Virus record (IMG/VR): IMGVR_UViG_3300033153_006571
Span: 1 to 50,718 of that record
DNA: 50,718 nucleotides
From: a virus
Strand: one strand, 5' to 3'
Part shown: piece after piece, positions 9,644 through 48,939 of the stretch
Layout of the letters: the number at the start of each line of letters is the position of its first letter
How positions within the stretch are numbered: the stretch's first letter is position 1
Notes under the pieces: model-generated
What the model was told of the DNA's origin: nothing
Seen by the model: the letters and a program-made list of their open reading frames with translations, nothing else
Database searches by the model: none
Made by a program: the position numbers and the translations under genes

Positions 9644-9682
9644 ATTGTTATGACGCTTGGGCATATAAGCTATATTCGTGAA

Positions 9683-9880
9683 GGTCTTGAAAGCTAACCA
9701 AAAGTCATGAGAGTACCATGATTTGAGAGTGAGCCATTGTATTAGAACGTAACAAAGAGTTGGAGTGAGCCATCGTTCTTGAGAGTACCACGCAAGCTGA
9801 GTGAATCATTGCACCCGAGAGTGCCAAGTGTCTAGAGTGAACCATATAACAAAGGAATACCATATGCCAGAAGCCAAATA
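9683..9880 (+). repeat. TIGR-like tandem interspaced repeat array A (upstream of the Tas-like gene)
   Basis: Eleven consecutive 18-bp units run without a phase break up to the ribosome binding site of the next gene; the last (9863-9880) is degenerate. Each unit is a variable 8-9 bases followed by a conserved 9-10. Two repeat types alternate. Units 3, 5, 7 and 9 end GAGTGAGCCA, GAGTGAGCCA, GAGTGAATCA and GAGTGAACCA. Units 2, 6 and 8 end GAGAGTACCA, GAGAGTACCA and GAGAGTGCCA. Units 4 and 10 are decayed versions (AACGTAACA, GGAATACCA). The true period is therefore 36 bp with two short spacers. The variable first 8 bases of units 1-10 are GGTCTTGA, AAAGTCAT, TGATTTGA, TTGTATTA, AAGAGTTG, TCGTTCTT, CGCAAGCT, TTGCACCC, AGTGTCTA and TATAACAA. 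This equals the published TIGR layout (36-nt RNAs with two 9-nt spacers and alternating edge and loop repeats). Because 18 is a multiple of 3, spurious periodic ORFs appear on both strands. Confidence 0.85.
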
Positions 9881-9899
9881 AAAAAACAGGAGGTATATC

Positions 9900-10781
9900 A
9901 TGGAAAAGCAAATTTTAAACAATCTTATCAAGGATTTAAAGAAAGCGCGGACCGAATTAACAGACAAGGAAGCAAGATACTTTGTAGACTTGTATTATCA
10001 GGTGCAGGAATTTAGAAAGGCAATAGACAACCAGATACGCAGTATTGTTGAGCCTGTGTACTATGACGAGGACGGCAAAAAGCGTAAGCCCACAGAAGAA
10101 GAAAAAGAGAGTTATGTACCCGAGCCACACGATAACCTAAATGTATTATCGGACATCATACATACTTTTGAAACACGGATAAAGGTAATGCTTGATGTTT
10201 ACACAAACAATCATATAGTAGGAAGATGGGCTAAGTCCATATGTGGGATAGGTCCTGTAATAGCAGCTGGCTTGTTGGCACACATTGACATTGAGAAAGC
10301 ACCGACAGCAGGGCATATATGGAGCTACGCAGGGCTGAACCCACAGCAGAAGTGGGCGAAGGGGCAAAAAAGACCATGGAATGCTTCATTGAAAGTCCTT
10401 TGCTGGAAAATAGGAGATTCCTTTAAGAAGCAAAAGTCAAGAGAAAACGATATATACGGGAAAATCCTTGATGAAAGAAAAACATATGAACAGCAGAGGA
10501 ATGAGAACGGCGAATATGCGGAACAGGCAAAAAGCATATTGCAGAAAAAAAATATAGGTAAAAGCACAGACGCCTATAAATGGTATTCACAAGGCATGTT
10601 GCCACCTGCGCACATACAGCAGAGAGCAGAAAGATATGCAACTAAGATATTTCTTTCTCATCTTCATACTTTTTGGTATACATATCATTATCAAACAAGA
10701 CCACCGAAGCCTTTTGCAATCAGTATATTAGGCCATGCACATGAAATTGAGCCGCCAAATATGCACATGCTTGCAGAATGA
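9900..10781 (+). CDS. Tas-like (TasA-type) Nop/IS110-domain protein, nuclease-less
   Basis: This 293-residue protein has a helical N-terminal half (about 1-110). A helix-hairpin-helix core follows at about 112-178, with SICGIGPVIAAGLLAHIDIE and HIWSYAGLNP. That is the signature of the C-terminal domain of IS110/IS116 transposases, which is related to the Nop domain of box C/D proteins. The tail carries HIQQRAERYATKIFLSHLHTFWY and PKPFAISILGHAHEIEPP. There is no N-terminal DEDD/RuvC transposase domain and no HNH motif, so it is not a complete transposase. It lies between two arrays of alternating 18-bp units, and array B begins at its stop codon. Established knowledge: Tas proteins of TIGR-Tas systems, found in phages, use such a domain to bind 36-nt guide RNAs, and TasA forms lack a nuclease. 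I infer an RNA-guided DNA-binding protein that could silence genes or block rival DNA. Automatic annotation would probably call it a transposase. RBS AGGAGG. Confidence 0.85.
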   Translation: MEKQILNNLIKDLKKARTELTDKEARYFVDLYYQVQEFRKAIDNQIRSIVEPVYYDEDGKKRKPTEEEKESYVPEPHDNLNVLSDIIHTFETRIKVMLDVYTNNHIVGRWAKSICGIGPVIAAGLLAHIDIEKAPTAGHIWSYAGLNPQQKWAKGQKRPWNASLKVLCWKIGDSFKKQKSRENDIYGKILDERKTYEQQRNENGEYAEQAKSILQKKNIGKSTDAYKWYSQGMLPPAHIQQRAERYATKIFLSHLHTFWYTYHYQTRPPKPFAISILGHAHEIEPPNMHMLAE

Positions 10782-10906
10782 TAGTTTTGAGTGAGCCACG
10801 GGGAATGAGAGTACCACAACTCGAGAGTGAACCATGTTACCAGATGGTTTCATCGAAAGCGAGTGAACCAATATTTGAGGAAGTTTCATAAGTGCCGAGC
10901 TAAAAA
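10781..10906 (+). repeat. TIGR-like tandem interspaced repeat array B (downstream of the Tas-like gene)
   Basis: Seven 18-bp units start at the stop codon of the Tas-like gene. Units 1, 3 and 5 end GAGTGAGCCA, GAGTGAACCA and GAGTGAACCA. Unit 2 ends GAGAGTACCA. Units 4 and 6 end in a variant, GATGGTTTCA and GGAAGTTTCA. Unit 7 (GAGCTAAAAA) is decayed. The alternation matches array A. The variable first 8 bases are ATAGTTTT, CGGGGAAT, CAACTCGA, TGTTACCA, TCGAAAGC, ATATTTGA and TAAGTGCC. Array and gene appear to be on one transcript, so guide RNAs would be cut from the mRNA. Confidence 0.82.
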
Positions 10907-10986
10907 TCAAAAAAAAGGGGGGATATCATGCGCAATTACATAAGTACAGCAAAAACATAACGGAAGTAAAAGAAAGGAGAATAGAT

Positions 10987-11328: not shown

Positions 11329-12611
11329 TCACACATCTAACCGCAGAACAGGAAGCAAAATTTCCTGAATATGTGAAAAAGTGGACTGAGATAGGTGGAT
11401 GCACAAAGCCTGCTGATAGAGTTAATGCAGAAAAAGCTATTAATGTAATGTATAAAATAGCGGGCCTATATCCGCCTAAAATAATCTGGTGTGGAAGTCC
11501 TTTAGGAAACGCTTTGACAAGAGCGATTGTAATCAAAATAGCTTCGGTCGGGGATTCGGTATGGGCTTCGGTCAGAGATTCGGTCGTGGCTTCGGTCAGA
11601 GATTCGGTCGTGGCTTCGGTCGTAGCTTCGGTCGTAGCTTCGGTCGTGGATTCGGTCTGGGCTTCGGTCAGGGCTTCGGTCGGGGATTCGGTCTGGGCTT
11701 CGGTCGGGGATTCGGTCGGGGATTCGGTCGGGGCTTCGGTCGGGGATTCGGTATGGGCTTCGGTCAGAGATTCGGTCGTGGCTTCGGTCAGAGATTCGGT
11801 CGTGGCTTCGGCCTATGAATCGGTCGGGGCTTCGGTCATGGCTTCGGTCGTGGATTCGGTCTGGGCTTCGGTCAGGGCTTCGGTCGGGGATTCGGTCAGG
11901 GCTTCGGTCGGGGATTCGGTCTGGGCTTCGGTCGGGGATTCGGTCGGGGATTCGGTCTGGGCTTCGGTCAGAGATTCGGTCGGGATGTCAGTATATGGGC
12001 AACATGATGCGAATTGGTTAAGTTTTTTCGATTATTTTAGCAATGAACTTAGTATCAACCTTTCTCAACTTAGGGGATTATGGTTATTGTGCAAATCTGC
12101 AGGATGGGCACTGCCGCACAAAAATATTTGTTGGGTATCCGAGCGGCATAATATTTTAAGAAAAGACGAACAAGGGAGATTACATTGTGAAAATGGTGTA
12201 GCCTTACAATACCCTGATGGATGGAGTCTATATTATTATCATGGGGTAAAGGTGCCTGAATGGGTAATAGAAAAGCCTCATACTATAACACCTAATACAA
12301 TTTTTACGGAAAAAAATGCAGAAATAAGACGTGTTATGATTGAGAAGTTTGGACGGGAAAAGTTTTTGTCTTTACCTACTTGCAAAAAGATTCATACAGA
12401 CGAATGGGGCACGTTATACAGGAACGAGGCAATACGAGACATTAATAGCGAACCATACTGTTTCGTAAAAGTTGTAAATAGTACTCCGGAACCGGATGGA
12501 ACATTTAGGGATTATATCCTGCGCGTCAGTCCGCGTTGTAAAACTGCGCAAGAAGCTGTACAAAGCACTTTCCCTCGTATAGAAAATTTTATGCCTATAG
12601 TTGAAAAATAG
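11325..12611 (+). CDS. DUF6745-like protein with internal tetrapeptide repeats
   Basis: This 428-residue protein starts at a TTG nine bases after AAGGAGGG, overlapping the previous stop. The N-terminus (LTAEQEAKFPEYVKKWTEIG, KPADRVNAEKAINVMY) and the C-terminal half (LHCENGVALQYPDGWSLYYYHG, VPEWVI, EIRRVMIEKFGREKFL, VKVVNSTPEPDGT) match the DUF6745 family as I remember it. Between them, about residues 73-220 are uninterrupted four-residue repeats of the form A/D-S-V-x, encoded by a 12-bp tandem repeat. Such repeats may form a solenoid. The function of the family is unknown. It sits in the early region with the GEATGHHH gene as its partner. Confidence 0.75.
   Translation: MITHLTAEQEAKFPEYVKKWTEIGGCTKPADRVNAEKAINVMYKIAGLYPPKIIWCGSPLGNALTRAIVIKIASVGDSVWASVRDSVVASVRDSVVASVVASVVASVVDSVWASVRASVGDSVWASVGDSVGDSVGASVGDSVWASVRDSVVASVRDSVVASAYESVGASVMASVVDSVWASVRASVGDSVRASVGDSVWASVGDSVGDSVWASVRDSVGMSVYGQHDANWLSFFDYFSNELSINLSQLRGLWLLCKSAGWALPHKNICWVSERHNILRKDEQGRLHCENGVALQYPDGWSLYYYHGVKVPEWVIEKPHTITPNTIFTEKNAEIRRVMIEKFGREKFLSLPTCKKIHTDEWGTLYRNEAIRDINSEPYCFVKVVNSTPEPDGTFRDYILRVSPRCKTAQEAVQSTFPRIENFMPIVEK
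11541..11984 (+). repeat. 12-bp coding tandem repeat
   Basis: About 37 units of the pattern (G/A)(C/A)TTCGGTCnnG encode A/D-S-V-x in the DUF6745-like protein. Units differ mainly at the fourth codon. The repeat leaves other frames open too: the same DNA would read as GFGR-type and SGIR-type repeats. Composition is much more G+C-rich than the flanks. Confidence 0.9.
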
Positions 12612-12990: not shown

Positions 12991-13467
12991 GTGGATAGAC
13001 AGAAACTTGATAAAATATTGCGGGAGCATAAGAAATGGGTAAACAATGAAGGCGGGAGGAAAGCAGACCTGAGAGGGGCAGACCTGAGAGGAGCAGGCCT
13101 GAGAGGAGCAGACCTGAGAAAAGCAGACCTGAGAAAAGCAGACCTGAGAGAAGCAGACCTGAGAGAAGCAGACCTGAGAGAAGCAGACCTGAGAATGGCA
13201 GTCCTGAGAATGGCAGTCCTGAGAGAAGCAGACCTGAGAGAAGCAGACCTGAGAAAAGCAGACCTGAGAGAAGCAGACATTGATTTTTCAGCTTGGCCTT
13301 TATGGTGCTGCAGTTTCGATGTGGTAGTTGACAAAAGGATAGCTGCGCAGTTAGCATATCATTTTTGCAGGCTTGTCTGTGATGATGATGAAGTCAAGAA
13401 CGCCCAGAAAGCACTTAAGAAAATTGCAAACCAGTTTCACAGAGTCGATGAATGCGGGGAGGTTTAG
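12991..13467 (+). CDS. Pentapeptide-repeat protein
   Basis: This 158-residue protein starts with GTG after GAAGGAGGTG. After 24 residues it enters about 15 pentapeptides of the A-D/V-L-R-x type (about residues 25-97), which fold as a right-handed quadrilateral beta-helix. A C-terminal region of about 60 residues follows ([20 protein letters not shown] and beyond). The C-terminal part resembles that of other phage pentapeptide proteins of unknown role. Some pentapeptide proteins mimic DNA and block gyrase; that is only a possibility here because the core residues are uniform Leu with basic or acidic flanks. It overlaps nothing and is followed at once by the sigma-factor gene. Confidence 0.85.
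13063..13281 (+). repeat. 15-bp coding tandem repeat (pentapeptide)
   Basis: About 15 copies of GCAGACCTGAGAnnn encode A-D-L-R-x. Neighbouring units are nearly identical in DNA, which suggests recent expansion by slippage or recombination. Confidence 0.9.
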
Positions 13468-17185: not shown

Positions 17186-17926
17186 ATGAAAATAACAAAG
17201 GAATTACTTCAAAAAAAAGGTGCTTGCAAGAGAGGTATAGAGTGGTTTAAGGAACGCTTTCCGAATGGCACTACTATTGAAGAAGCAGTAAAAGAACTGG
17301 CGGAAGGAAATATTGATACTGATTTTGTGTGGTGGTTTTATGAACATGTGCAACAAGACGCTAGATTGTATGTTCTATGTGGCGTAATTAATTCATTCGG
17401 CGTGAATGGGTCTTATGGCGTGAATGGGTCTTATGGCGTGAGTTGGTCTAATGGCGTGAATGTGTCTTATGGCGTGAATAGGTCTGATGGCGTGAATGGG
17501 TCTTATGGCGTGAGTTGGTCTAATGGCGTGAGTTGGTCTAATGGCGTGAATGGGTCTGATGGCGTGAGTTGGTCTTATGGCGTGAATGGGTCTTATGGGG
17601 TAATTAACAGCTATGGAGTCGACGCCGCTTTATTTTTGGCGAATAAGCCACGCACTTACAGCATATTTGGCAATGAAGTGTCGGAAGAAAGGTTTATTGA
17701 GGTTAGAAAGAGTTTTTTTGAAAAACTTAATAACTGGAAGCCGACATTTAACAATATTAAGACGAAACATGGTTCAGACTGGAAAGAAGCGCCCATAAAA
17801 AACGCAAAAGCACTATCAAAAGATGAGGCATGGAAGGATATGCCGAAAGAAGCCATAGAATACCTTAAGTCATTGCCCGAATTTGATTCTGACATATTCT
17901 ATGAAGTGACAGGGATAAGAGCGTAA
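17186..17926 (+). CDS. Hexapeptide-repeat protein (YGVNGS repeats)
   Basis: This 246-residue protein has a short folded N-terminus (LLQKKGACKRGIEWFKERFP, then WWFYEHVQQDARLYV). About 12 six-residue repeats follow (Y/N/D-G-V-N/S-x-S, about residues 67-146). The C-terminal domain is distinct (VDAALFLANKPRTYSIFGNE, DMPKEAIEYLKSLPEFD). The repeats could form a solenoid. I do not recognise a named function; similar proteins with this N-terminus and repeat type occur in other phages. It lies between recT and the MBL-fold gene and shares its last base with the next ATG (TAATG). Confidence 0.7.
   Translation: MKITKELLQKKGACKRGIEWFKERFPNGTTIEEAVKELAEGNIDTDFVWWFYEHVQQDARLYVLCGVINSFGVNGSYGVNGSYGVSWSNGVNVSYGVNRSDGVNGSYGVSWSNGVSWSNGVNGSDGVSWSYGVNGSYGVINSYGVDAALFLANKPRTYSIFGNEVSEERFIEVRKSFFEKLNNWKPTFNNIKTKHGSDWKEAPIKNAKALSKDEAWKDMPKEAIEYLKSLPEFDSDIFYEVTGIRA
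17383..17621 (+). repeat. 18-bp coding tandem repeat
   Basis: About 12 units close to GGCGTGAATGGGTCTTAT encode the six-residue repeat. Variation is concentrated in two codons of each unit. The 18-bp period equals that of the TIGR-like arrays, but here the frame is coding and the sequence is unrelated. Confidence 0.88.
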
Positions 17927-20875: not shown

Positions 20876-21359
20876 CGGAAATGATAATAGATGGAATATA
20901 AATAAATACACTAAGCACAGAGCAGAAGAATTAAGCAAATCATTAATTAATTGTACTAACTGCAGTGATTGCAGTGATTGCAGGGGATGCAGGGGTTGCA
21001 TTGGTTGCATTGATTGCATTGGTTGCAATGATTGCAGGGGTTGCAGTGATTGCAGGAGTTGCAGTGATTGTCTTGATTGCAGGAGTTGCAGTGATTGCCT
21101 TGATTGCATTGGTTGCAGGGGATATACTGGATTTTCACATATGGCATACGGAACACAACCAATCGGCCCTCGGTCTGACGTTGCGCATTTTTATTACTAC
21201 AACAAAAAAATATATGCGAAGTGCGGATGCTTTTGGGGAACTATAGATGAATTTGAAGAAAAAGTTAATAGTACACATGGCACAAATCAATATGCCAAAC
21301 AATATTTTGCAGAAATTGAAAAGGTAAGAGAATTATTTAAGGAGAGTGTAGGGGAATGA
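20847..21359 (+). CDS. Cysteine-rich tandem-repeat protein
   Basis: This 170-residue protein has an N-terminus DGNDNRWNINKYTKHRAEEL. About 20 three-residue repeats of the form C-x-D/G/S follow (about residues 35-92). The folded C-terminal domain (HMAYGTQPIGPRSDVAHFYY, YAKCGCFWGTIDEFEEKV, TNQYAKQYFAEIEKVREL) looks like a domain shared with other phage repeat proteins. The dense regular Cys ladder could form a solenoid with a metal or disulfide spine. The function is unknown. RBS GGAGAG. Confidence 0.7.
   Translation: MKKENGYWVDGNDNRWNINKYTKHRAEELSKSLINCTNCSDCSDCRGCRGCIGCIDCIGCNDCRGCSDCRSCSDCLDCRSCSDCLDCIGCRGYTGFSHMAYGTQPIGPRSDVAHFYYYNKKIYAKCGCFWGTIDEFEEKVNSTHGTNQYAKQYFAEIEKVRELFKESVGE
20950..21122 (+). 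repeat. 9-bp coding tandem repeat (C-x-x)
   Basis: About 19 units near TGCAGTGAT or TGCAGGGGT encode the Cys ladder. Higher-order repeats of two to three units are visible. Copy number is probably unstable. Confidence 0.88.
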
Positions 21360-29257: not shown

Positions 29258-29659
29258 ATGGAAATTAAAGAGGATTTTCTCAAAGAACGTACAAAAAAGC
29301 GAAAAGAGTTTAAAAAATATTTAGGCGAAGCATTGCAAAAACGTAAAGCTATAAGAAAATGTAAAGGCATAAAAATTATATGTGAAGGGCACGCGTATGG
29401 ATGCGGACTTTACGCATGGTATCAATGTAAGCATCTCGATAGCAACTTAAGATGTAAAATAGACAAGAATAATAATTTGTGCGACAAAAACCATAAGTGG
29501 TTTTTGTTTTTCCCTTATTGTCCTTATAAAAGATATATAAAAATAAGGGATCCTATATATGGACGTTATGAAAAGTATTGCAAGGATTCTATATATGGAC
29601 GTTATGAAAAGTATTGCAAAGATAGAGATAAATATAAAAAACTATTAAGGGATATATAA
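29258..29659 (+). CDS. Cys-rich hypothetical protein with a duplicated motif
   Basis: This 133-residue protein has a basic N-terminus, then CEGHAYGCGLYAWYQCKHLD and later CDKNHKW and FPYCPYK, which could bind metal. Near the C-terminus IYGRYEKYCKD occurs twice, encoded by a recent 36-bp tandem duplication (about 29551-29622). No family is recognised. RBS AAGGAGG. Confidence 0.6.
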   Translation: MEIKEDFLKERTKKRKEFKKYLGEALQKRKAIRKCKGIKIICEGHAYGCGLYAWYQCKHLDSNLRCKIDKNNNLCDKNHKWFLFFPYCPYKRYIKIRDPIYGRYEKYCKDSIYGRYEKYCKDRDKYKKLLRDI

Positions 29660-46176: not shown

Positions 46177-48939
46177 GATGCTTATATTGACGGTGTAATA
46201 ATAGAGCCGGATTATACAGAGAAATATCCTTCTTCATATACGGATGGCCCGAGAAGTGTTGGTAATGGCTATGGTGAAGCAATAGAAGAATCTTCAAATG
46301 ACTATTATTATCAGACATCACACACATCAGCTCAAGGGAAGCTTATTTTAACAACAACAGGTGATAATGATTATGCGACTATTCCGTCTATAGTAGGAGA
46401 TTTTTCAGAAAACTTTCAATTGGATTTTGCTTTTGAAACAAGCGATGGAATAAATACCTCAGATATAATATTTCAAAAAACATCAGGCGGTAATGGATGG
46501 GCAATTCGATGGTCTAGTCCATCATGGCCTAATGATGACGGACCAAGATTGTATACTTATTCAGATTCAGGCAATGAAACATTTTGGTTTCATAAAAATA
46601 TGAGTAAGGACACAAAATATTGGTTGAGATTGGTAAGAGAAGGGAATACAGTTACAGGATATTATTCTACAAATGGGCAAAATTACACACAAGCATTTCA
46701 AACTTCAAGCTCAAATGTTCTTGAAGCTTTTGACGATTCCGCAGACGGTGAATATTTGCGGATGGAAACGGATTATGGCACGAAAACAATATATAACCTG
46801 AAAATTGTAAAAGGGATTACGACATATGAATATCTTTTTAATAATAATTTCGGTGTTGACAAGGAAATAATCGCAAATCAGGGCGGTGAGGATGGGCAAT
46901 GTTATAATGGTGCCGAACAAGCCTCAGATGGTACGGATATTTATTTATATACAGCTTTAACGCAAAGAGCTTTTAATTTTACGGATGGTGAAGTATTAAG
47001 AATAATACCAAGCGCAACTCAAACAGCAGGATTAACAGCATATGTCAGAGTTAATAGCTGGGGAACATATTATCCTGTTAGTAATATAGAATTAACGGCT
47101 GACGAATATTATGAATTAATATGGGACAATGCAAATGAGGAATGGAATGCTTTTAGAAACCTTGAGGCAAGTGATTTTACAGATTTAACGGATAGTGGAG
47201 ACTCAACATTACATTATCATGCATCCGATAGAGCAAGAAGTAATCATACAGGTACACAAGCGGCAAGTACAATAAGCGATTTTGATACTGAGGTAAGTAA
47301 CAATACAGATGTTGCAGCAAATACAACAGCAAGACATTCAAGGAAGCATGACATAAACGGTACCGATGACCATAACGGAGTAGGGGGAGCAACAGAAGAT
47401 AACTTTGTATCTTTTGATGCTAATGGGCTGCCGAAAGATTCAGGGCATAATGACACTGATTATGAGGACGCAGGAGCGGTTGCTACTCATGCGACACTAA
47501 CTGAAACACACGGAGCTACAGGGGCAATCATGGGCACAACTAATACACAAGAGGTATCAAACAAAACCTTGACGCCAAAAGCAACAGTCAAAGGTAACGC
47601 GGCTTCGGATGCCGCAACTTTAGGTAGTGAACTTGTCACAAACGGTACATTTGACAGTGACTTATCAGGTTGGACAATATCAGATACAGGCACAAAATGG
47701 ACATGGGATGCTACAGGTGCAGCTATCCATAATGGTGATGGTAACACTGAAACAATAAGTCAGAATGTAAATGTCACATTAGATGAGTATTATGTCTTAG
47801 CTTTTACTATATCAGGAAGAACAGCAGGAACATTGACACCTTCTCTGAATGGGGTAAATGGATATGCGCAAAGTACAGATAATACTTATTATTTCAGTTG
47901 GAAAGCTACTGCCACAGCAGCACATTCTCTGATGTTCACACCTTCGGGAACATTTAATGGTAAATTGGATGATATTTCATTCAAACAAGTTACGGCTGAT
48001 TTGGCAGCATTGATTGAATTAAAGGATTCTGGTGGGGCTGTAAGTGCAGAAATGCGGAGTGGAACTAATACTTTGTATAATTTCTTTATCGGTTATAATA
48101 GTGGGAAAAATAATTATAATGGACATTATAATGCGGCAATAGGCTATGCGACAATGCAGAATAATACAATAGGACATTATAATGCAGCAATAGGCTATGC
48201 GGCAATGCAGAATAACATAACTGGTTATGCTAATGCAGCAATAGGCTATGCGGCAATGCGCAGTAACATAACTGGTTCTGCTAATGTGGCTATAGGATAT
48301 ACAACAATGCATTATAACACAACTGGTTCTACTAACGCAGCTATAGGCTATGCGGCAATGTATCACAACACAACTGGTTCTACTAACGCAGCAATAGGCT
48401 TTACTGCAATGCGCAGTAACACAACTGGTTCTGCTAATGCGGCTATAGGTTCTTATGCAATGCGTCATTCACAGACTGGAAATAACAATATTAGCATAGG
48501 TGGTTATTCTTGTGGATATGGTACAGGTGCAGTCTTTACCGCAGCCTCAAACCACGTAGTTATCGGGCATCAGGCTGGATACAACATAGGCACTTCTGAT
48601 TCAGCAAATGTAATGATAGGCTATCAAGCAGGGTACAATGAAACTGGTAGTAATAAGCTCTACATTTCAAACACAAATACTGCAACACCGCTTATATATG
48701 GAGAGTTTGATAATGGTATATTGGGATTTACGGCACAAGTAGGCATAGGCACAAAAACACCTAACGCAAATGCCGCATTGGATATAGCAAGCACAACAAA
48801 GGCATTTATGCCACCAAGAATGACAACAGTACAAAAAAATGCAATAGGAACGCCTGCGGCAGGTATGGTTGTATATGATACAGATTTATCAAAACTATGT
48901 GTATATACAAACGCATGGGAAACTATAACAAGTTCATAA
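46177..48939 (+). CDS. Tail fibre, C-terminal part (read-through or disrupted)
   Basis: This 920-codon open frame is in phase with the 45619 gene. It first finishes the beta domain (DAYIDGVIIEPDYTEKYPSS). It then holds a concanavalin-like domain (FQLDFAFETSDGINTSDIIF), a segment rich in HNDTDH-type fibre motifs, a second binding domain (SELVTNGTFDSDLSGWTISD), seven 17-residue head-like repeats, and a tail fibre end (ALDIASTTKAFMPPRMTTVQ, AGMVVYDTDLSKLCVYTNAW). It is the likely receptor-binding part. No good ribosome binding site lies at its start (a TTG at 46420 is weak), so it probably needs read-through, suppression or repair of the TAG. Confidence 0.8.
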   Translation, partial: DAYIDGVIIEPDYTEKYPSSYTDGPRSVGNGYGEAIEESSNDYYYQTSHTSAQGKLILTTTGDNDYATIPSIVGDFSENFQLDFAFETSDGINTSDIIFQKTSGGNGWAIRWSSPSWPNDDGPRLYTYSDSGNETFWFHKNMSKDTKYWLRLVREGNTVTGYYSTNGQNYTQAFQTSSSNVLEAFDDSADGEYLRMETDYGTKTIYNLKIVKGITTYEYLFNNNFGVDKEIIANQGGEDGQCYNGAEQASDGTDIYLYTALTQRAFNFTDGEVLRIIPSATQTAGLTAYVRVNSWGTYYPVSNIELTADEYYELIWDNANEEWNAFRNLEASDFTDLTDSGDSTLHYHASDRARSNHTGTQAASTISDFDTEVSNNTDVAANTTARHSRKHDINGTDDHNGVGGATEDNFVSFDANGLPKDSGHNDTDYEDAGAVATHATLTETHGATGAIMGTTNTQEVSNKTLTPKATVKGNAASDAATLGSELVTNGTFDSDLSGWTISDTGTKWTWDATGAAIHNGDGNTETISQNVNVTLDEYYVLAFTISGRTAGTLTPSLNGVNGYAQSTDNTYYFSWKATATAAHSLMFTPSGTFNGKLDDISFKQVTADLAALIELKDSGGAVSAEMRSGTNTLYNFFIGYNSGKNNYNGHYNAAIGYATMQNNTIGHYNAAIGYAAMQNNITGYANAAIGYAAMRSNITGSANVAIGYTTMHYNTTGSTNAAIGYAAMYHNTTGSTNAAIGFTAMRSNTTGSANAAIGSYAMRHSQTGNNNISIGGYSCGYGTGAVFTAASNHVVIGHQAGYNIGTSDSANVMIGYQAGYNETGSNKLYISNTNTATPLIYGEFDNGILGFTAQVGIGTKTPNANAALDIASTTKAFMPPRMTTVQKNAIGTPAAGMVVYDTDLSKLCVYTNAWETITSS
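48121..48477 (+). repeat. 51-bp coding tandem repeat in the tail fibre
   Basis: Seven 17-residue units of the form G-x-x-N-A-A-I-G-Y-x-x-M-x-x-N-x-T resemble the left-handed beta-roll repeats of trimeric adhesin heads. The DNA units are alike enough for recombination to change their number, which could alter fibre length or receptor range. Confidence 0.9.

What the first reader, a model, noticed from the sequence alone, without database searches (positions are those of the whole stretch)
9683..10906. TIGR-Tas-like RNA-guided system in a phage immunity region
Seen: an orphan 293-residue protein with an IS110/Nop-type helix-hairpin-helix core and no nuclease domain is flanked on both sides by tandem 18-bp units. 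Within each array two conserved cores alternate (GAGTGARCCA and GAGAGTACCA), each preceded by 8-9 variable bases, so the true period is 36 bp with two short spacers. Known: TIGR-Tas systems, described in phages, use arrays processed into 36-nt RNAs with two 9-nt spacers and a Tas protein whose Nop domain is related to IS110 transposases and box C/D proteins; TasA forms lack a nuclease. Inference: this is a TasA-type system, so the likely outcome is guided DNA binding (silencing or interference) and not cutting. It lies next to the lysis/lysogeny genes.
Basis: partly seen in the sequence, partly recalled or inferred. Interest (0 to 1): 0.95.

Follow-up and report, generated by a model that had tools for sequence, protein, structure and literature searches.

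The report
TIGR-TasA guide-RNA system in temperate phage
A phage that can lie dormant in bacteria carries a small, CRISPR-like but unrelated system (a TasA protein flanked by two short guide-RNA arrays) that most likely binds chosen DNA sites without cutting them; it belongs to the TIGR-Tas family described in 2025, and what it targets is unknown.

Summary
Two arrays (9691-9880 and 10789-10898) flank a 293-aa ORF (9900-10781). Both run in exact 18-bp register with alternating repeats GAGTGARCCA (edge) and GAGAGTACCA (loop) and 8-nt spacers; the phased score is 75/80 against at most 44 in 100 shuffles. The protein passes NCBI's TIGR-Tas model (205 bits, cut-off 100). Its AlphaFold model (pLDDT 92.7) has TasR and TasH as its ten best PDB matches, then IS110 recombinases, and it has no nuclease domain, so it is TasA.

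Of 93 related loci, 85 carry the same 36-bp units, against 0 of 117 control loci. Edge-repeat positions 3-8 and 4-7 covary, as expected for the ends of a 36-nt tigRNA. In near-identical relatives whole 36-bp units and spacers turn over while tas and the flanks do not.

Most likely mechanism: guided, non-cutting DNA binding at 16-bp split targets. No target was found: the phage's own genome, the Tas loci and the host-genome tests gave nothing above chance.

Verdict: a new member of a known kind, well supported, with function and targets open.

The parts
9691..9880 (+). TIGR array 1: 5'-truncated edge (AACCA kept), then five 36-bp units (spacer A, loop, spacer B, edge). The fifth unit is degenerate.
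   Evidence: Register listing; phased score 75/80 vs at most 44 in 100 shuffles, lag-36 peak
9900..10781 (+). tasA: 293-aa Nop/IS110-type guide-RNA-binding protein without a nuclease domain
   Evidence: NCBIfam NF052498 205 bits; Pfam Transposase_20; PDB sequence hits to TasR/TasH; AlphaFold pLDDT 92.7; Foldseek ten best = TasR/TasH
10789..10900 (+). TIGR array 2: begins with a complete edge 8 bp after the tasA stop; three units, the last one with a degenerate loop; 3'-truncated edge GAGC (10897-10900) ends the array
   Evidence: Register listing; lag-36 peak
9696..9839 (+). Predicted mature 36-nt tigRNAs 1-4 (9696-9731, 9732-9767, 9768-9803, 9804-9839). Cut site inferred as mid-edge GAGYG|ARCCA.
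   Evidence: Inference from the published mid-edge cut (PMC12045711) and the edge 3-8/4-7 covariation. Not measured.
10794..10865 (+). Predicted mature 36-nt tigRNAs 6-7 (10794-10829, 10830-10865)
   Evidence: As above. Not measured.
9886..9896 (+). Ribosome-binding site (AGGAGGT region) of tasA, just after array 1, so array 1 lies in the tasA leader
   Evidence: Sequence

Best explanation
This is a dual-repeat TIGR-TasA system carried by a temperate tailed phage. Arrays and tasA are all on the + strand, and a single transcript (array 1, tasA, array 2) is likely. A host RNase, with TasA bound, should cut in the middle of each edge repeat to give 36-nt tigRNAs (ARCCA, spacer A, loop, spacer B, GAGYG). 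A TasA dimer would hold one tigRNA: edge halves on one protomer, loop on the other. The two 8-nt spacers would pair with opposite strands of one roughly 16-bp DNA site, laid out 5'-[spacer A][0-2 bp][reverse complement of spacer B]-3'. Without a nuclease the outcome is stable binding, unwinding and bending of the site, hence blocked transcription or replication. The target is most likely DNA of other mobile elements rather than the phage itself. Shown here: family membership, array anatomy, no nuclease, no self-target, spacer turnover in relatives. Inferred from TasR/TasH work: processing, pairing geometry, DNA binding. Speculative: the identity and purpose of the targets.
For: NF052498 205 bits. 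AlphaFold pLDDT 92.7 with ten best PDB hits TasR/TasH; profile search 9mty TasR 5.6e-24, TasH 2.1e-14, IS621 3.7e-5. Array score 75/80 vs at most 44. 85 of 93 relatives carry the unit; 0 of 117 control loci do. The experimentally studied Salicola phage TasH locus has near-identical repeats (AAGCGAGCCA / AAGACAACCA, 8-nt spacers). Edge pairs C8-G3 in 655/679 units (468 expected if independent) and R7-Y4 in 672/679 (583 expected); loop positions 4-7 are unpaired in 47 of 52 loci. Spacers show 47% identity where tas shows 96%, repeats 88% and downstream DNA 98%, with gaps of about 36 and 72 bp. No self-target above chance.
Against: No RNA data and no binding data. No target found for any guide. 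Two terminal units and two other loops are degenerate, so part of the array may be decaying. No intrinsic terminator was found after array 2, whereas published arrays usually have one. Foldseek TM-scores are moderate (0.49-0.57), as expected for 17-21% identity and different domain poses.
Confidence: 0.85

Rival explanations
1. TasA is an RNA-guided regulator of the phage's own or its host's genes, for example a lysogeny switch or an aid to integration. The guides would match phage or host sites.
For: It sits between the Rha/Cro-like regulators and the early genes. The authors of the family suggest regulation or integrase help as possible roles (PMC12045711).
Against: No window guide matches the phage at 0-1 mismatch; the 19 sites with up to 3 mismatches equal the 17.9 expected from permuted spacer pairs. 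Across 864 guides there is no excess in their own loci. One twin guide of a Propionivibrio prophage has no exact site in its host genome or in 80 genomes searched around it. Fast spacer turnover does not fit a fixed self-site. The window phage's own host is unknown, so its host genome was not tested.
Confidence: 0.15
2. The system cuts DNA through a nuclease supplied in trans by the phage or host.
For: NCBI names the family model an endonuclease. Replication and recombination genes lie downstream: SbcC-like ATPase and RecT.
Against: Clustering of neighbours within 5 kb over 70 dereplicated groups finds no constant partner; the commonest, a helicase family, is in 13 groups. The name reflects TasR/TasH members; this protein has no nuclease domain.
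Confidence: 0.08
3. The locus is a decaying or inactive remnant: tasA is intact but the arrays no longer yield working guides.
For: Four of eight loop repeats are degenerate and array 2 is short.
Against: tasA is a full-length ORF keeping the family-invariant residues. Edge repeats are nearly perfect, and at least six units keep the invariant box bases.
Confidence: 0.1
4. It is an IS110-type transposase with incidental flanking repeats.
For: Pfam Transposase_20 and PHROG 'transposase' labels.
Against: NCBIfam IS110 model scores 32 bits against a 140 cut-off. No DEDD/RuvC catalytic domain; IS110s rank below TasR/TasH by fold. Arrays of variable guides recur with the protein.
Confidence: 0.01

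Closest known systems
TIGR-TasA (Flavonifractor plautii type, dual-repeat arrays; Faure et al. 2025, PMC12045711)
   Same: Solo Nop-domain protein, arrays beside the gene, alternating edge/loop repeats, 36-bp unit
   Different: 8-nt rather than 9-nt spacers; a short array on each side of the gene; several degenerate loops. FpTasA sequence was not compared here.
TIGR-TasH of Salicola phage CGphi29 (PDB 21kl, 9w04 series)
   Same: Near-identical repeat motifs (AAGCGAGCCA/AAGACAACCA), 8-nt spacers, same Nop fold
   Different: TasH has an N-terminal HNH nuclease; the window protein has none
TIGR-TasR (PDB 9mty)
   Same: Nop/coiled-coil fold and best profile match
   Different: TasR has a RuvC nuclease and 9-nt spacers with UG/CCA boxes; here the boxes read GA/CCA
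IS110/IS621 bridge-RNA recombinases (PDB 8wt6, 9t56)
   Same: Shared RNA-binding Nop-like core
   Different: No DEDD catalytic domain here, arrays instead of one bridge RNA

Membership tests
TIGR-Tas | Tas protein with a Nop/IS110-type RNA-binding domain | tested here: met
   NF052498 205 bits vs cut-off 100; Foldseek ten best = TasR/TasH
TIGR-Tas | Array next to the gene of two alternating short repeats separated by 8-12 nt spacers, about 36 bp per unit | tested here: met
   same in 85 of 93 relatives, 0 of 117 controls
[quoted passage not shown]
   AACCA at 9696-9700 opens array 1; GAGC at 10897-10900 ends array 2. The end of array 1 is unclear and array 2 opens with a complete edge.
TIGR-Tas | Edge-repeat halves can pair (box C/D pair plus a covarying pair) | tested here: met
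   Pairs 1-9, 3-8 and 4-7 over 52 loci; 3-8 and 4-7 covary
TIGR-Tas | Rho-independent terminator after the array (typical, not obligatory) | tested here: not met
   No terminator-like site after 10898 in a simple consensus scan
TIGR-Tas | Processing into 36-nt tigRNAs bound by Tas | not testable with these tools
   Needs small-RNA sequencing
TIGR-Tas | Tandem-spacer DNA targeting of both strands | not testable with these tools
   Needs a binding assay; no natural target found
TasA subtype | No RuvC or HNH domain | tested here: met
   Only Transposase_20 in Pfam; model starts directly with coiled-coil helices
IS110 transposase | N-terminal DEDD/RuvC catalytic domain and family score | tested here: not met
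   32 bits vs cut-off 140, no catalytic domain
CRISPR-Cas | Single repeat type of about 25-36 nt with cas genes | tested here: not met
   Repeats are 10 nt and of two kinds; no Rfam match in the window; no PADLOC match for the Tas protein or the two genes after it

The most novel reading that the evidence does not exclude
TasA arrays of this clade diversify rapidly by gaining, losing and replacing whole 36-bp dual-spacer units, with no adaptation gene beside them, to keep a non-cutting, guide-directed silencing system aimed at changing rival mobile elements. That would be a new route of guide acquisition by an RNA-guided immune-like system.
Probability: 0.3. Interest if true: 0.8.

Novelty: new member of a known kind. 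Interest (0 to 1): 0.42.

Why it matters
The biological role and natural targets of nuclease-free TasA systems are stated open questions (PMC12045711). This locus is compact (about 1.2 kb), complete, and sits in a temperate phage beside an integrase and repressor, so lysogens would make the question testable. The relatives gathered here add one lead: near-identical phages exchange whole 36-bp units while the rest of the locus stays put, so spacers look like the fast-evolving, selected part.

Tried and rejected
Target search by the published geometry (spacer A, 0-2 bp, reverse complement of spacer B) for 864 guides over all Tas loci: 3 exact and 126 one-mismatch sites, against 0-4 and 102-134 in five permuted controls. 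Gaps of 0-40 bp and three other orientations gave no peak. Viral-collection scans: two window guides gave 8 and 7 hits and a mispaired control 12. A third guide (TCGTTCTT/CGCAAGCT) gave 86 hits, but most fall in unrelated proteins that share the codon word for RKLKN(D/E), so it was rejected as a target.

Ten phages sharing the Rha gene lack a Tas match; most of those records are fragments. No recurrent neighbour gene was found. RNA folding of the arrays shows no structure beyond shuffles. No Rfam or tRNA hits. The host could not be identified: the integrase and terminase matches are all below 60% identity. A family search by accession and the genome-file request were not available.

Full report
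WHAT IS THERE. The window is itself a 50,718-base virus record. Reading 9665-10910 in 18-bp steps shows two arrays in perfect register, on the same strand as the ORF between them. The repeats alternate: GAGTGARCCA (edge) and GAGAGTACCA (loop), with 8-nt spacers. A search for eight phased, alternating motifs scores 75 of 80 at 9709; 100 first-order Markov shuffles of the window reach 44 at most. Self-matching peaks at lag 36 in both arrays, so the true unit is 36 bp. Array 1 opens with a 5'-truncated edge and array 2 closes with a 3'-truncated one (GAGC), as described for TIGR arrays (PMC12045711). Two internal loops (GAACGTAACA, GATGGTTTCA) and the loops of the last unit of each array (AGGAATACCA, GGAAGTTTCA) are degenerate. 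The internal two keep the bases that are nearly invariant in the family; the terminal two do not.

THE PROTEIN. The 293-aa product of 9900-10781 matches NCBIfam NF052498 (TIGR-Tas) with 205 bits against a cut-off of 100, and the IS110 model with only 32 against 140. In Pfam it has only Transposase_20. By sequence its significant relatives in the PDB are TasR (9mty, 4.5e-13) and TasH (5.4e-10); a profile of 44 relatives raises these to 5.6e-24 and 2.1e-14 and adds IS621 at 3.7e-5. AlphaFold with 44 aligned sequences gives pLDDT 92.7. Its ten best Foldseek matches are all TasR or TasH chains (E 2.3e-7 to 5.8e-6, TM 0.49-0.57), followed by IS110-family recombinases. The model starts directly with the coiled-coil helices, so there is no RuvC or HNH domain. 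It is TasA. NCBI's family name 'endonuclease' would mislead here.

THE FAMILY. Searches of viral and genome contigs gave 93 relatives. With one simple rule (edge motif at 36-bp spacing with a loop between), 85 of 93 carry at least two units on the tas strand, two on the other strand, and none of 117 viral loci without Tas on either strand. The loci carry 2 to 63 units, median 10; arrays lie downstream (49), upstream (14) or on both sides (19) of tas. The experimentally studied Salicola phage TasH locus has nearly the same repeats, AAGCGAGCCA and AAGACAACCA, and 8-nt spacers. Within edge repeats, positions 3-8 and 4-7 covary (G-C, A-T, T-A; C-G, T-A). Between successive edges C8-G3 pairs in 655 of 679 units against 468 expected if independent, and R7-Y4 in 672 against 583; loop positions 4-7 mostly do not pair. 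The edge rule used to collect units allowed two mismatches and did not link C with G or T with A. This fits a mature 36-nt RNA cut mid-edge (GAGYG|ARCCA) whose two ends pair, as seen in the TasR structure (PMC12045711).

SPACER TURNOVER. Loci L013 and L016 share 96% of tas, 98% of downstream DNA and 88% of repeat positions, but only 47% of aligned spacer positions, and differ by gaps of 38, 72, 36 and 72. L035 against L022 and L032 shows 89% and 73% spacer identity, with many gaps of 36, 72 and 108. The 36-bp unit is therefore the unit of change, and spacers are the fast-evolving part. This was seen in relatives, not in the window, which has no near-identical relative here. It rests on a small number of pairs, and alignment of repeats can distort percentages.

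TARGETS. By the published rules the expected target is 5'-[spacer A][0-2 bp][reverse complement of spacer B]-3'; I worked out the order of the two halves from the published 8-nt 3' overhang and C-5 rule. The window's guides have no site in the phage at 0-1 mismatch, and 19 sites at up to 3 mismatches against 17.9 for permuted pairs. Over 864 distinct guides, hits in all Tas loci equal permuted controls. A twin guide of a Propionivibrio prophage has no exact site in its host genome or in 80 genomes searched around it. One window guide gave 86 viral hits, but most read RKLKN(D/E) in unrelated proteins: a coding word, not a target. So self-targeting is not supported, and the real targets are unknown.

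CONTEXT. Upstream lie an amidase endolysin, a serine integrase, a CI-like repressor, a Rha protein and a Cro-like HTH; downstream a DUF6745 protein, a pentapeptide-repeat protein, a sigma factor, an SbcC-like ATPase and RecT. Ten other phage records with a related Rha gene have no Tas match, so the module looks accessory, although most of those records are fragments. No neighbour recurs with Tas across 70 dereplicated groups except a helicase family in 13.

MECHANISM. Shown: membership, anatomy, absence of a nuclease, no self-target. Inferred from TasR/TasH: processing by a host RNase with Tas bound, one tigRNA per dimer, both strands read, DNA unwound and bent. Inferred without direct support: the outcome is silencing or replication block of rival mobile elements.

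VERDICT. This is a well-supported new member of a published family. Interest is moderate: it lies in the open question of what TasA does and in the unit turnover, not in the existence of the locus.

Noticed in passing
L013 10894-11800 vs L016 2978-3740; L035, L022, L032 arrays: Near-identical phages differ in TIGR arrays by gaps in multiples of about 36 bp and by replaced spacers while tas and flanks are conserved.
   Followed up: partly
L057, L059, L043, L041, L050: Very long TIGR arrays (40-63 clean units), far above the 5-15 described as usual.
   Followed up: no
L088 9795-9902: Two units with identical spacer B (CACTGGTA) and spacer A differing by one base (GAAATAAC/GAAGTAAC), as if one guide was duplicated and mutated; no exact site in the host genome.
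   Followed up: partly
11541-11984: 12-bp tandem repeat (37 copies) coding (DSV/ASV)n in the N-terminal half of a DUF6745 protein.
   Followed up: no
13061-13278: 15-bp tandem repeat coding a pentapeptide-repeat protein, 12991-13467.
   Followed up: no
17399-17598 and 20961-21118: Two further 18-bp tandem repeat arrays, without the TIGR edge/loop motifs.
   Followed up: no
29548-29623: Two near-perfect copies of a 36-bp direct repeat beginning GGATCCTATATATGG.
   Followed up: no
48129-48484: 51/153-bp repeats in a tail-spike-like virion protein.
   Followed up: no
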